A stretch of DNA of 64,000 nucleotides from assembly GCA_000955795.1 (NCBI GenBank), contig JYOB01000007.1:1-64000 (forward strand). Reading direction: 5' to 3'. This document shows positions 137-16,851 of the stretch, piece after piece (positions within the stretch are counted from its first letter, which is position 1; every line of letters starts with the position of its first letter). This DNA is from Burkholderiaceae bacterium 26. Its GTDB lineage: Bacteria; Pseudomonadota; Gammaproteobacteria; Burkholderiales; Burkholderiaceae. Both the position numbers and the translations under genes were made by a program. The notes beneath the pieces are model-generated. The model did no database searches and had not been told where the DNA came from. It saw only the letters and a program-made list of their open reading frames with translations.

Positions 137-1444
137 CTATCGCGCCGCCCATAGGCGGAGATAAGACCCATCGGGGTCGTACTCGGAGGCTTGCCTCCGG
201 GTATTGAACCGCCTGCCGCCACGTGGGTCTGTGCCACGCCCCGCGATATACAACCAATTGCCCTGATTGCTGTAGACGTCGTAGTCAACGAGTTGCGATT
301 CGAACCACGCAGCCCCTGCGCGCCAGTCGCATTTCAGGTCATGCACGAGGTAGCTGGCGACCACCTGCCTGAGCCTGTTGCTAAGGTACCCGGTGGCCTC
401 CAGTTCGCGCATCGCGGCATCGACAAGCGGTTCCCCTGTCGATGCACGACGCCAGCGCTCGAAATCCTGGGCATCGAGGCGCTCGGCATGCTGCGGTTGA
501 TCGGAGAGCCCGCCTGCACGGTACAGTCGCGCGCCATGCTGAAGATGCAGAAAGCGGAAGTAGTCTCTCCACAGCAACTCGAACCACAGCCAATAGCTGC
601 CATCACTCTTGCCGTGCAACTGTTCGAACCGCTGCAGCTCCGCAAACACGCGTCGGGGCGACAACGCGCCGCTGGCCAGCCACGCAGACCATTTGCTTGA
701 GAAGTCCAGCCCAGCCAAGGCGTTACGCGTGCGCTTGTACGTATGAGGCAGCTTGCGCTGCAGGTAATTGGCAAGGTGCTGAAGGCCCGCCGTCTCACCT
801 CCATCAAACTCCGGCCTGCCATACGGAAACGACGAGCGCGAATCCGCCGCTAATACTTTGGCTGCATCGGGAGCGGGCGCACGCACCAGGCCAGGCGGGA
901 AGACGAGTCCAGGCGGCCGTGGCGGAAGGTAAGCCGGCGGAGGTAGAGGCTGCGAAGGTTGGATCGACGCTTGTTCAATCGCTTGCCTGAACGTTGTGAA
1001 CACACGCGGCAGCGATTGAACGGACCAAGGCAGAGCAAACGGATCAATCAGACTGCTCTGCCAGACGGTCCGCACGAGCAGTCCCGCACTTCGCAGTTCG
1101 GCCACTTCTGCTTGCTCGTATGGTGCGGCGATGTCTTCGCAAAACACAGCCGTGGCGCCCATAGCCTGCGCCAATGCGGGCAGGACCTTACCAGGCGGGC
1201 CGCAGCACTCGACCAGCGGGTTGCCGAGATCGGCCAACTGGCGCTTCAGATCCCGGACAGCTGCCGCAAGCACGGCCCGACGGTGCACGCCCACGCGTGC
1301 AAAACCCCAGGGCGTCGGCTCGTCGTAATCCGCATGGCAGTACACCGGTACGAGGTGCCTGGCCCCGCTCTCGCACGCTGCACGCAATGCCCGCTGATCA
1401 TGCAGCCGTAGATCGTTGCGAAACCAGATGAGGACGGTACTCAA
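137..1444 (-). CDS. Cryptochrome DASH (FAD/folate photolyase family)
   Basis: A 435-residue flavoprotein of the photolyase/cryptochrome family, DASH branch, whose members repair cyclobutane dimers in single-stranded or looped DNA using blue light. The N-terminal alpha/beta domain opens with the typical VLIWFRNDLRLHD segment (about residues 4-16). The C-terminal FAD domain has the DASH-type WFELLWRDYFRF stretch and the QGNWLYIAGRGTDPRGG motif near residue 394. I chose the TTG at 1444 because GGAGAAG lies just upstream, the homologous N-terminus starts there, and the longer frame reads out of frame through the DUF2256 gene. The TTG overlaps the stop of that gene in the tetranucleotide TTGA, so translation is probably coupled. 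The UV/light-stress neighbourhood agrees with the call. Confidence 0.93.
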   Translation of the reverse strand: MSTVLIWFRNDLRLHDQRALRAACESGARHLVPVYCHADYDEPTPWGFARVGVHRRAVLAAAVRDLKRQLADLGNPLVECCGPPGKVLPALAQAMGATAVFCEDIAAPYEQAEVAELRSAGLLVRTVWQSSLIDPFALPWSVQSLPRVFTTFRQAIEQASIQPSQPLPPPAYLPPRPPGLVFPPGLVRAPAPDAAKVLAADSRSSFPYGRPEFDGGETAGLQHLANYLQRKLPHTYKRTRNALAGLDFSSKWSAWLASGALSPRRVFAELQRFEQLHGKSDGSYWLWFELLWRDYFRFLHLQHGARLYRAGGLSDQPQHAERLDAQDFERWRRASTGEPLVDAAMRELEATGYLSNRLRQVVASYLVHDLKCDWRAGAAWFESQLVDYDVYSNQGNWLYIAGRGTDPRGGRRFNTRRQASEYDPDGSYLRLWAAR

Positions 1445-1605
1445 CGCGCTTCTCCATCGCGTGCCTTGCCTTGCTTGGCTTCTTTGCGGCAACGCTCGGA
1501 GCAGTACTTGACTGCATCCCAGTCCCTCGCCCACTTCTTGCGCCAGGTGAATGGCAAGCCGCAGTGCACGCAGTGCTTGCTCGGCAGATTTAGCTTCTTG
1601 TGCAT
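1441..1605 (-). CDS. DUF2256 small zinc-ribbon protein, cryptochrome partner
   Basis: A 54-residue protein found by reading the gap between the two cryptochrome genes. It has two Cys pairs, C12-x2-C15 and C35-x3-C39, with a tryptophan/lysine-rich stretch between (WRKKWARDW), the signature of DUF2256. DUF2256 genes are commonly found beside or fused to cryptochrome/photolyase genes; the biochemical role is unknown. It starts 8 bases after the upstream photolyase-like gene and ends in a TTGA overlap with the Cry-DASH start, so the three genes form one translationally linked unit. No strong Shine-Dalgarno is visible, which fits coupling to the upstream stop. Confidence 0.85.
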   Translation of the reverse strand: MHKKLNLPSKHCVHCGLPFTWRKKWARDWDAVKYCSERCRKEAKQGKARDGEAR

Positions 1606-1613
1606 CGACGGGT

Positions 1614-15845: not shown

Positions 15846-15860
15846 GCATACGCTGTATAC
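15846..15860 (-). promoter_or_regulatory. CAGCGTAT motif with GTATAC, upstream of folE
   Basis: Five bases behind the MerR-gene stop the minus strand reads GTATACAGCGTATGC. It contains the same CAGCGTWT core as the sites at 7866-7876, 8033-8055 and 16872-16882, and a TATACA that could serve as a -10 for folE about 80 bases downstream. I see no good -35. Confidence 0.35.
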
Positions 15861-15864
15861 GTAG

Positions 15865-16851
15865 CTAACCTGCTGGTGGATGCAGCGATTCCGCCCGGAT
15901 TGCGAATTCCATGGCGTCTTCGAGCATCAACCGGGCGCGATTGGCGACATCCCCGAGATAGCGGTGCAGTTGTTCATCAAGCGAAGACCGCACCGCACAG
16001 CCATCGCTGAAACGCTCGAATGCATCGAGCTGGCGAATCAGCCCGACAAGGTGCCGCGGGCATTCGCAGGCAATCGTCTGCGAGGCGTTGGCAAAGATCT
16101 CCAGCTGCCGGTCTGTGAACCGGCGCGCATTGCGTCGCAACGGTTCGAGCTTTCCGTAGACCGCGTCCACGCGCACGAGCTGCGCCAGTTCTTGCAGAAC
16201 CTGGTCAAGCTCACCCTGTGCATTGGGCTCCCGATACAGCCGCACGCCGGCCGCGCGCAGCATGTCGGTGGCGCGAACCGTACCGAAGCTGTAGATCACA
16301 CCGACGGCACTGGCACCGCACCGCCGTGCCATCGCCAACAAGGCTTCTGCCGTTTCCGGATGCAGGGACGCTGCTTCCGCGATCAGCGCATCTGTGCTCG
16401 GCGGTGACTCAAGCTGAGCCTCGGCGTCCAGCGCGGGCAATTCGATGACGGGCTCGATCCCAAGCGACACCAGCGTGCTTTTTCTGCGCCGGACGCGCTC
16501 CGCCAGCAACGTGCCACAGACGGAAAGCGAAATGGCGGCAGTGGGCGGCGCCAGCGCCGGTGCTTCAGCAGCGAGCGAGGCGTCCAGCAACTGCTGGAGC
16601 TCGGTGCTGTCTGCATGCGCAATGGCGCCGATCGCGTGCCCCTGATTGACGAGCGAGCGCAGCAGCGCAAGGCGTTTGACGTCCTCGCCCGAGTACAACC
16701 GCTGGCCGGACTCTGATTTGGTGGGCGAAATCACGCCATAGCGCTGCTCCCACACACGGAGCGTGGATACAGGCATCTTGGCCATGCGGGCGGCCGTTCC
16801 GCTTCGGTACATCGGGGCCGCGTTGTCTTCGTGTGGCACGTGCGTCTCCAT
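15865..16851 (-). CDS. MerR-family light/stress regulator, LitR/CarH-like
   Basis: A 328-residue regulator. Residues 14-80 form a MerR-type winged helix (MYRSGTAARMAKMPVSTLRVWEQRYG with the SGQRLYS wing). The rest resembles the LitR/CarH effector region, but the cobalamin signature DxHxxG is absent. It has a small cysteine cluster instead (C262-x-C264-P-x-H267, with C285). That pattern fits the LitR class that senses light without adenosylcobalamin, as I recall it. It stands beside the photolyase/folE/Cfa genes that such regulators control in other proteobacteria. Starts at 16851 or 16812 are both possible; neither has a strong Shine-Dalgarno. Confidence 0.85.
   Translation of the reverse strand: METHVPHEDNAAPMYRSGTAARMAKMPVSTLRVWEQRYGVISPTKSESGQRLYSGEDVKRLALLRSLVNQGHAIGAIAHADSTELQQLLDASLAAEAPALAPPTAAISLSVCGTLLAERVRRRKSTLVSLGIEPVIELPALDAEAQLESPPSTDALIAEAASLHPETAEALLAMARRCGASAVGVIYSFGTVRATDMLRAAGVRLYREPNAQGELDQVLQELAQLVRVDAVYGKLEPLRRNARRFTDRQLEIFANASQTIACECPRHLVGLIRQLDAFERFSDGCAVRSSLDEQLHRYLGDVANRARLMLEDAMEFAIRAESLHPPAG

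What the first reader, a model, noticed from the sequence alone, without database searches (positions are those of the whole stretch)
137..16851. One light/photo-oxidative locus holding three photolyase-type flavoproteins, folE and a lipid-modification operon
Seen: Cry-DASH plus DUF2256, a second cryptochrome-like protein, an Fe-S PhrB-type photolyase with all four Cys ligands, folE, a MerR/LitR-like regulator, two Cfa-type methyltransferases, DUF1365, DUF1295, DUF2878, two lipocalins and a chalcone-isomerase-fold protein within 16.7 kb. Known: similar sets are light- or singlet-oxygen-induced in other proteobacteria, and amine oxidase/DUF1365/Cfa genes are linked to furan fatty acids. Inference: this locus repairs UV damage and at the same time makes or binds protective membrane lipids, with folE feeding the photolyase antenna.
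Basis: partly seen in the sequence, partly recalled or inferred. Interest (0 to 1): 0.75.

Follow-up and report, generated by a model that had tools for sequence, protein, structure and literature searches.

The report
Light-locus furan-lipid and photolyase genes
Two neighbouring gene sets that share one rare promoter appear to let this bacterium repair ultraviolet damage and coat its membranes with protective furan lipids; the locus is a fuller version of a known one, and it points to an unstudied membrane enzyme as a further piece of that lipid pathway.

Summary
The genes are as described, with one correction: of the two 'Cfa-type' methyltransferases only 11754-12953 is one, in the UfaM position. 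The other, 9843-10943, is nearest to plant coclaurine N-methyltransferases and groups with the one Rhodopseudomonas gene class that fits FufM, which adds the second methyl to furan fatty acids. With UfaD (13714-15009) and UfaO (DUF1365, 12950-13735), one operon with a LitR-type regulator and folE would encode the whole dimethyl-furan-fatty-acid route. A second operon carries lipocalin, FeS photolyase, an odd cryptochrome, DUF2256 and Cry-DASH. Both begin with one 36-bp promoter pattern, found exactly twice in the 5.68-Mb genome (up to 3 mismatches). Light/singlet-oxygen loci of this kind and UfaM/D/O are published: a new variant of a known kind. Newest point: the membrane protein between UfaM and FufM (DUF1295, 10975-11751) tracks FufM in many loci, sits beside a ChrR-type switch in Rhizobium, a DUF1295 gene is singlet-oxygen-induced in an alga with the same enzyme families, and its predicted fold resembles steroid/sterol reductases. 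Light induction and lipid products were not testable. 'FolE feeds the photolyase antenna' could hold for Cry-DASH, hardly for PhrB.

The parts
16937..16954 (-). direct repeat CGATTCAATTCCGACTCA upstream of promoter 1, candidate operator
   Evidence: one exact match in the window (2 matches at up to 2 mismatches, 0.40 expected, 9 of 100 shuffles reach 2); conserved upstream of litR in the alignment of 14 genus genomes, own included, from which the pattern was drawn
16872..16907 (-). promoter 1 (CATTTCATTGACG-N14-GCGTTTCAT), upstream of litR-folE-ufaD-ufaO-ufaM-DUF1295-fufM
   Evidence: present upstream of litR in 14 of 14 genus genomes searched, own included
15865..16851 (-). LitR/CarH-like MerR-type regulator, no B12 domain detected; invariant C262-E-C264-P-x-H267, C285, H296; start may be GTG at 16839
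15038..15766 (-). folE, GTP cyclohydrolase I, diverged
13714..15009 (-). ufaD candidate, FAD-dependent oxidoreductase/desaturase
   Evidence: UfaD with UfaO in 40 of 40 loci; start
12950..13735 (-). ufaO candidate, DUF1365
   Evidence: UfaO = DUF1365 in PMC7380195
11754..12953 (-). ufaM candidate, CFA-synthase-type methyltransferase
10975..11751 (-). DUF1295 integral membrane protein, predicted fold like steroid 5-alpha-/sterol delta-14-reductases; proposed further member of the furan-lipid pathway
9843..10943 (-). fufM candidate, coclaurine-N-methyltransferase-like SAM methyltransferase
9277..9819 (+). DUF2878 protein
8668..9300 (-). lipocalin 2; start overlaps that of DUF2878 on the other strand
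8120..8656 (+). chalcone-isomerase-like protein
7866..7901 (-). promoter 2 (CATTTCGTTGACG-N14-GCGTTTCAT), upstream of lipocalin 1 and the photolyase genes
7170..7829 (-). lipocalin 1, Blc-like
   Evidence: Blc model 201.9 bits, below its 267 cut-off
5551..7092 (-). phrB-type Fe-S photolyase, four cysteines kept
4569..5501 (-). TIGR01777 family SDR oxidoreductase
3347..4249 (-). alpha/beta hydrolase
1614..3164 (-). second cryptochrome-like protein with a non-canonical flavin pocket
1441..1605 (-). DUF2256 small protein, just downstream of CRY2
137..1444 (-). Cry-DASH, proposed start overlaps the DUF2256 stop

Best explanation
A two-operon light/singlet-oxygen defence locus. Operon 1 (litR-folE-ufaD-ufaO-ufaM-DUF1295-fufM) converts existing phospholipid 18:1 chains to mono- and then dimethyl-furan fatty acids, which quench singlet oxygen and radicals in the membrane. 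Operon 2 (lipocalin-phrB-SDR, then probably hydrolase-CRY2-DUF2256-Cry-DASH) repairs UV lesions and handles lipids. Both start from one dedicated promoter type that is released or activated in light through the LitR-type regulator. DUF1295 is a further, post-synthesis member of the lipid route, most likely a membrane ene-reductase acting on oxidised furan lipids. Shown here: the genes, their order, the shared promoter pattern unique to these two places, family placement, the DUF1295-FufM coupling and a predicted DUF1295 fold. Inferred: operon limits, light control by LitR, the lipid product, and the DUF1295 reaction.
For: Genes. UfaD+UfaO in 40 of 40 DUF1365 loci fetched (40 of the 94 hit genomes), UfaM with them in 38 of 40. 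FufM assignment: tree of 234 sequences with a 137-tip FufM-like clade, support 0.86; in 6 of 6 Rhodopseudomonas-group genomes the CMAS matches over 130 bits are UfaM (beside UfaO), the FufM-like gene (beside DUF1295) and, in 3 of 6, one Cfa; identity to Rhodopseudomonas UfaM 24-26% for four FufM-like proteins and 33-35% for three Cfa, against 26% and 38% to R. sphaeroides UfaM published for RPA0924 and RPA3082; closest solved relatives coclaurine NMTs, matching the published FufM/AT4G33110 resemblance. FufM-like genomes also hold UfaO in 18 of 19 cases, others in 76 of 280. Promoter: 2 sites in the genome, 0 in the reversed control. Named analogues: Burkholderia anthina, Cupriavidus, Caballeronia, Acinetobacter and Rhizobium tropici plasmids carry the five lipid genes. 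Alga: CFA1, CFA2/CPLD27, a DUF1365 and a DUF1295 gene are among the singlet-oxygen-induced, SAK1-dependent genes.
Against: RPA0924 and RPA0923 sequences were not held, so FufM identity rests on clade, elimination and identity range; the window's own pair is only 20.6% identical. The published Pseudomonas operator TGTACA-N12-TGTACA is absent (one 2-mismatch hit at 55611, 1.2 expected), so LitR control of these promoters is unproven. The DUF1295-FufM pair is not universal (8 of 30, 2 of 29 and 20 of 80 loci lack it, 4 of the 20 for want of flank), for example in 6 of 9 Bradyrhizobium loci. FufM alone was sufficient for the dimethyl product in the published work, so DUF1295 is not needed for synthesis. 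The promoter pattern is genus-specific. No expression or lipid data.
Confidence: 0.72

Rival explanations
1. The locus makes only the monomethyl furan acid; 9843-10943 is a small-molecule N-methyltransferase or another lipid methylase and DUF1295 a generic lipid enzyme, co-located by habit.
For: Its nearest solved relatives are alkaloid N-methyltransferases; a FufM-like gene lies within the 20 kb in only 8 of 40 UfaO loci, so many UfaO loci have none beside them.
Against: The same family placement fits published FufM; FufM-like genomes are enriched for UfaO (18 of 19 against 76 of 280); all five genes in 39 of 80 named loci, by record titles from several phyla.
Confidence: 0.15
2. Two unrelated gene sets that happen to lie side by side.
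For: In three congeners (G483, G516, G524) photolyase-set genes lie beside a second LitR gene, apart from the lipid set.
Against: The shared promoter pattern is found only at these two places in the genome; lipocalin and photolyase-family genes recur near the lipid genes in named plasmids.
Confidence: 0.06
3. The regulator answers oxidants or a metabolite, not light; the locus is a general membrane-oxidation response.
For: No B12 domain detected, no match for the NCRFLQ codon pattern in the genome, no Pseudomonas operator in the window; the regulator has an invariant CxCPxH...C...H set that could hold a metal.
Against: Class III LitR of Burkholderia is reported to change absorption with light (citing a paper not held); three photolyase-family genes sit in the locus.
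Confidence: 0.25

Closest known systems
Pseudomonas putida/mendocina light-inducible locus (PplR/PmlR class II LitR with short LOV)
   Same: MerR-type LitR, phrB, short-chain dehydrogenase, FAD oxidoreductase, ufaM, cryB, folE and unannotated genes; light-induced (PMC9758184)
   Different: Here no TGTACA operator in the window and no match for the canonical LOV motif searched; LitR has no detected B12-related domain; an added FufM-DUF1295 pair (not mentioned in the sections read), two more photolyase-family genes and lipocalins; a distinct shared promoter
Rhodobacter sphaeroides / Rhodopseudomonas palustris furan fatty acid pathway (UfaM, UfaD, UfaO, FufM)
   Same: Same gene families; DUF1365 is UfaO; FufM family (PMC7380195)
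   Different: By their locus tags ufaM (R. sphaeroides) or fufM (R. palustris) lie apart from ufaD-ufaO, and R. sphaeroides uses RpoE-ChrR; here all four are in one run with folE, DUF1295 and LitR
Class III LitR of Burkholderia multivorans
   Same: MerR HTH with a C-terminal part of no known domain, Burkholderiaceae, light response reported (via PMC9758184; original paper not held)
   Different: Its sequence could not be compared; membership is by taxon and domain make-up only
Chlamydomonas singlet-oxygen acclimation genes (SAK1-dependent)
   Same: CFA1, CFA2/CPLD27 (listed as coclaurine N-methyltransferase), DUF1365 and DUF1295 genes co-induced (PMC4067076, passages)
   Different: Eukaryote, separate gene ids, SAK1 control; their sequences were not compared here

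Membership tests
Furan fatty acid pathway (UfaM/UfaD/UfaO) | UfaM: CFA-synthase-type SAM methyltransferase linked to DUF1365 | tested here: met
   5z9o E 1.7e-52; adjacent to DUF1365; UfaM with DUF1365 in 38 of 40 loci
Furan fatty acid pathway (UfaM/UfaD/UfaO) | UfaD: FAD oxidoreductase; UfaO: DUF1365 | tested here: met
   PF01593/PF13450 and PF07103 (246.7 bits)
Furan fatty acid pathway (UfaM/UfaD/UfaO) | makes 9M5-FuFA | not testable with these tools
   needs lipid analysis
FufM | same clade as the R. palustris enzyme RPA0924 | tested here: inconclusive
   clade with Rhodopseudomonas FufM-like genes, 48% identity; RPA0924 itself not held, assignment by elimination
FufM | methylates 9M5-FuFA to 9D5-FuFA | not testable with these tools
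   needs assay
LitR/CarH class I | C-terminal B12-binding domain | tested here: not met
   only the MerR HTH is matched by Pfam and by solved CarH
LitR/CarH class II | short LOV partner gene and TGTACA-N12-TGTACA operator | tested here: not met
   no match for the NCRFLQ pattern in the genome (CGN arginine codons only); operator absent from the window
LitR/CarH class III | Burkholderia-type C-terminus, light-dependent absorption | tested here: inconclusive
   40-48% identity to full-length homologues in other genera of the family; reference sequence and spectra not available
FeS photolyase PhrB | four cysteine ligands of the Fe-S cluster | tested here: met
   alignment to 4dja and 7ykn; which four are ligands is recalled
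Cry-DASH | TIGR02765 above cut-off | tested here: met
   441 against 317 bits
Canonical class I photolyase (for 1614-3164) | NNGGWQW flavin-pocket motif with proximal Trp | tested here: not met
   reads HWSQMQM in the window and in two congeners, against the genome's own class I photolyase; role of the motif recalled
Steroid 5-alpha-/sterol reductase fold (DUF1295) | fold of 7c83/4quv over most of the chain | tested here: met
Steroid 5-alpha-/sterol reductase fold (DUF1295) | NADPH-dependent C=C reduction | not testable with these tools
   needs assay

The most novel reading that the evidence does not exclude
DUF1295 regenerates or detoxifies spent furan lipids. When furan fatty acids quench singlet oxygen or radicals they become dioxoenes (1,4-ene-diones). 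DUF1295, with a membrane ene-reductase fold, would reduce the double bond with NADPH; the 1,4-dione could then close again to the furan (Paal-Knorr, recalled). Dimethyl-furan lipid would be a recyclable membrane antioxidant in bacteria and algae.
Probability: 0.12. Interest if true: 0.8.

Novelty: new variant of a known kind. Interest (0 to 1): 0.52.

Why it matters
It puts the complete predicted dimethyl-furan-fatty-acid route, a probable light regulator and the photolyases into one locus with a promoter pattern that marks nothing else in the genome, so the regulon is directly testable. It also names an unassigned membrane protein family (DUF1295) as a likely further member of the furan-lipid system, with support from gene neighbourhoods in several phyla and from published singlet-oxygen expression data in an alga, and it offers a concrete reaction to test. 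Nothing linking DUF1295 to furan fatty acids appeared in searches of the held library (open-licence papers only; listings and, for some hits, passages).

Tried and rejected
Pseudomonas-type LitR operator: not found. Canonical LOV partner: none by motif (the pattern allows only CGN arginine codons). The short PAS protein at G000:C5:2646-3080 has Leu where LOV proteins have the adduct Cys (motif recalled); kept only as a lead. DUF1295 by single-sequence search against solved structures: no credible relative; a profile was needed (ICMT E 7e-4, steroid reductase E 4e-3). A fold search with the LitR model gave CarH as best hit, but at TM 0.2-0.3 and with receptor structures between, so no fold claim is made for its C-terminal part beyond helices. 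FolM-like role of the SDR beside the second LitR: not supported; generic SDR models score best and none of the 25 shown (of 216) reaches its cut-off. First adjacency count for DUF1295 used stop-to-stop ORF ends and undercounted; it was replaced. A first tree script lost the window rows as duplicates and was redone. A search for furan fatty acids with Ralstonia/Burkholderia/Cupriavidus listed nothing to the point among the 15 of 6,540 papers shown (listing only).

Error: the named-genome scan was run by mistake with the antisense frame of the FufM-like gene of L188. Of the 95 loci confirmed by that scan 80 were kept; all 80 carry a FufM-like gene by forward comparison, but they are not a clean homology sample, so counts from them are given apart.

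Weak points: the 40 UfaO loci were chosen by me from 94 hit genomes for spread over families. The phylum set for adjacency is 30 fetched of 33 FufM-like matches over 250 bits; the Rhodopseudomonas-family set is 29 newly fetched of 38 genomes. Near relatives count singly. The 18-of-19 count was read by hand (matches over 250 bits, handles below G299) on the assumption that the 398-genome sample contains the 299-genome one; a FufM-like fragment in G217 (93.7 bits), which has no UfaO match, is left out, and two of the 94 UfaO matches are weak fragments. In the genus, 14 of 16 sampled genomes have the LitR match; only those 14 were searched for the promoter, whose pattern was itself drawn from them and from three examples of the second site.
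Full report
WHAT IS THERE. The window lies on contig C42 of a 5.68-Mb genome, and its first base is the contig's first base. Sixteen genes between 137 and 16851 plus DUF2256 were identified by Pfam and NCBIfam. On the minus strand, in reading order: LitR-like regulator, folE, FAD oxidoreductase, DUF1365, CFA-type methyltransferase, DUF1295, second methyltransferase; then lipocalin 2 (with DUF2878 and a chalcone-isomerase-like gene on the other strand); then lipocalin 1, PhrB, TIGR01777 SDR, alpha/beta hydrolase, second cryptochrome, DUF2256, Cry-DASH. 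The last three are tightly packed: DUF2256 begins at 1605, just below the CRY2 stop at 1614-1616, and the proposed Cry-DASH start overlaps the DUF2256 stop. PhrB keeps the four cysteines that align with the Fe-S ligands of 4dja (ligands recalled).

ORGANISM. The GTDB family also holds genomes of 1.7-2.1 Mb and of 6-9 Mb; one close congener (LitR 98% identical) has a replicon of 1.80 Mb besides the rest of its 5.3 Mb in two contigs. The 16S gene is 96.5% identical to Cupriavidus campinensis, the best plasmid record, with near relatives of the window possibly left out of that collection. The most likely genus is Ralstonia (inference, not shown).

THE LOCUS IS CUT BY THE ASSEMBLY. In congener G446 it continues past the Cry-DASH gene. 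Contig C19 (3,221 bp) matches the missing stretch at 97.8% (G446 stretch 25848-29067), between the window start (25779) and C11 (29046). In G446 this stretch carries succinate-dehydrogenase-type iron-sulfur and flavoprotein genes; an SDR and a second LitR gene follow on the C11 side.

THE LIPID OPERON. Published work shows that UfaM, UfaD and UfaO (the last a DUF1365 protein) make the monomethyl furan fatty acid 9M5-FuFA on existing phospholipid chains and that FufM (RPA0924) adds a second methyl (PMC7380195; abstract, Results, Discussion and cloning section read). In 40 loci of 18-20 kb around DUF1365, taken from 40 of the 94 genomes with a match out of 299 searched, UfaD and UfaO were together in 40 of 40 and UfaM in 38 of 40. 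The window has the order UfaD-UfaO-UfaM. The second methyltransferase is not a CFA synthase in the narrow sense: its nearest solved relatives are plant coclaurine N-methyltransferases (6gkv E 1.4e-73; best CFA synthase 3.7e-25), while the UfaM gene is nearest to CFA synthase (5z9o 1.7e-52). Another group found FufM 37.87% identical to Arabidopsis AT4G33110 (PMC10940516, passages), which I recall as coclaurine-NMT-like. In a tree of 234 sequences the FufM-like genes form one clade of 137 (support 0.86) apart from UfaM and Cfa. Four of their FufM-like proteins are 24-26% identical to two Rhodopseudomonas UfaM and the three Cfa proteins 33-35%; the paper gives 26% for RPA0924 and 38% for RPA3082 to R. 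sphaeroides UfaM. The window's own pair is 20.6% identical. FufM-like genomes hold UfaO in 18 of 19 cases against 76 of 280 for the rest (Fisher p 4e-9; relatedness not corrected). The window operon therefore most likely encodes the full dimethyl route.

THE SHARED PROMOTER. TTGACG-N17-TTTCAT occurs twice in the window without mismatch (none in 100 shuffles), at 16872-16900 upstream of litR and at 7866-7894 upstream of lipocalin 1. With two mismatches allowed the count is at chance (5 found, 3.6 expected), so the signal is in the exact form. The longer form CATTYCRTTGACG-N14-GCGTTTCAT, drawn from these sites and their congeners, was searched in 22 genomes with up to 3 mismatches: the own genome has these two sites and no other, and no control hit. 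The litR site is present in 14 of 14 genus genomes searched (own included) and a second site, about 9 kb away, in 9 of 14; that the second site precedes lipocalin 1 was seen in the own genome, G446 and G415. The 8 genomes outside the genus gave only three single 3-mismatch hits and one control hit, so the element is genus-specific. Five extra hits in congeners are scattered: four at 3 mismatches, and one with a single mismatch upstream of another LitR gene in G524. Upstream of the litR promoter lies a conserved direct repeat, a candidate operator. In three congeners (G483, G516, G524) lipocalin-photolyase genes lie divergent to the second LitR gene instead (in G524 the stretch seen ends after Cry-DASH); the window's arrangement looks like a fusion of two LitR-linked modules.

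REGULATOR. Only the MerR head is recognisable. The C-terminal part has invariant C262-x-C264-P-x-H267, C285 and H296 in 19 of 19 aligned sequences, window and paralogues included, and is predicted helical, which could be a metal or cluster site. Class III LitR of Burkholderia is reported to change absorption with light by an unknown mechanism (PMC9758184 introduction; the original is not held). The window protein is 40-48% identical to full-length homologues in other genera of the family (44 of 249 family genomes have a match), but its class is not proven.

AGAINST KNOWN SYSTEMS. The Pseudomonas loci (PMC9758184; introduction, three result sections and discussion read) already join LitR, phrB, SDR, FAD oxidoreductase, ufaM and unannotated genes under light, with cryB and folE light-induced elsewhere. 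The furan-lipid genes are core targets of RpoE-ChrR in other bacteria (PMC6852236, passages). New here are the complete one-operon dimethyl route, the closed two-promoter regulon and the DUF1295 link.

FOLE. The window FolE is the only PF01227 match of the genome and scores below the FolE equivalog cut-off, while a FolE2 gene lies elsewhere. It is probably an inducible supply of reduced pterin or folate beside FolE2. Feeding Cry-DASH is possible; feeding PhrB is not expected (antenna types recalled).

Noticed in passing
window 1614-3164: Second cryptochrome-like protein lacks the class I flavin-pocket motif: NNGGWQW of the genome's own canonical photolyase is HWSQMQM, so the residue at the flavin N5 position would be His and the proximal Trp is Met (roles recalled). 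Same in two congeners.
   Followed up: partly
window 15865-16851, residues 262-296: Invariant CxCPxH...C...H set in the LitR C-terminus in 19 of 19 aligned sequences, a possible metal or Fe-S photosensor site.
   Followed up: partly
L034 2646-3080 (G000:C5): Short 145-aa PAS protein resembling a short LOV protein but with Leu in place of the adduct Cys (GHSLRILQG; LOV motif recalled).
   Followed up: partly
window 1; L336; L146: Assembly break: C42 start, the 3,221-bp contig C19 and C11 start are neighbours in congener G446; succinate-dehydrogenase-type genes and a second LitR gene lie there.
   Followed up: yes
window 9277-9300: DUF2878 (plus strand) and lipocalin 2 (minus strand) have overlapping divergent starts, so their promoters would lie inside each other's coding sequence.
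   Followed up: no
L347 (NZ_CP071828), L351 (NC_020060): The furan-lipid block lies on plasmids typed as conjugative in Burkholderia anthina and Rhizobium tropici, so the response may be transferable.
   Followed up: partly
L351 3733-4152: A DUF2177 gene beside the block in R. tropici; a DUF2177 gene is also among the singlet-oxygen-induced Chlamydomonas genes, a possible further member.
   Followed up: no
window 17051-22031: A Laminin_G_3 protein (17051-19342, minus) and a family-28 glycosyl hydrolase (20016-22031, plus) lie just beyond the locus.
   Followed up: no
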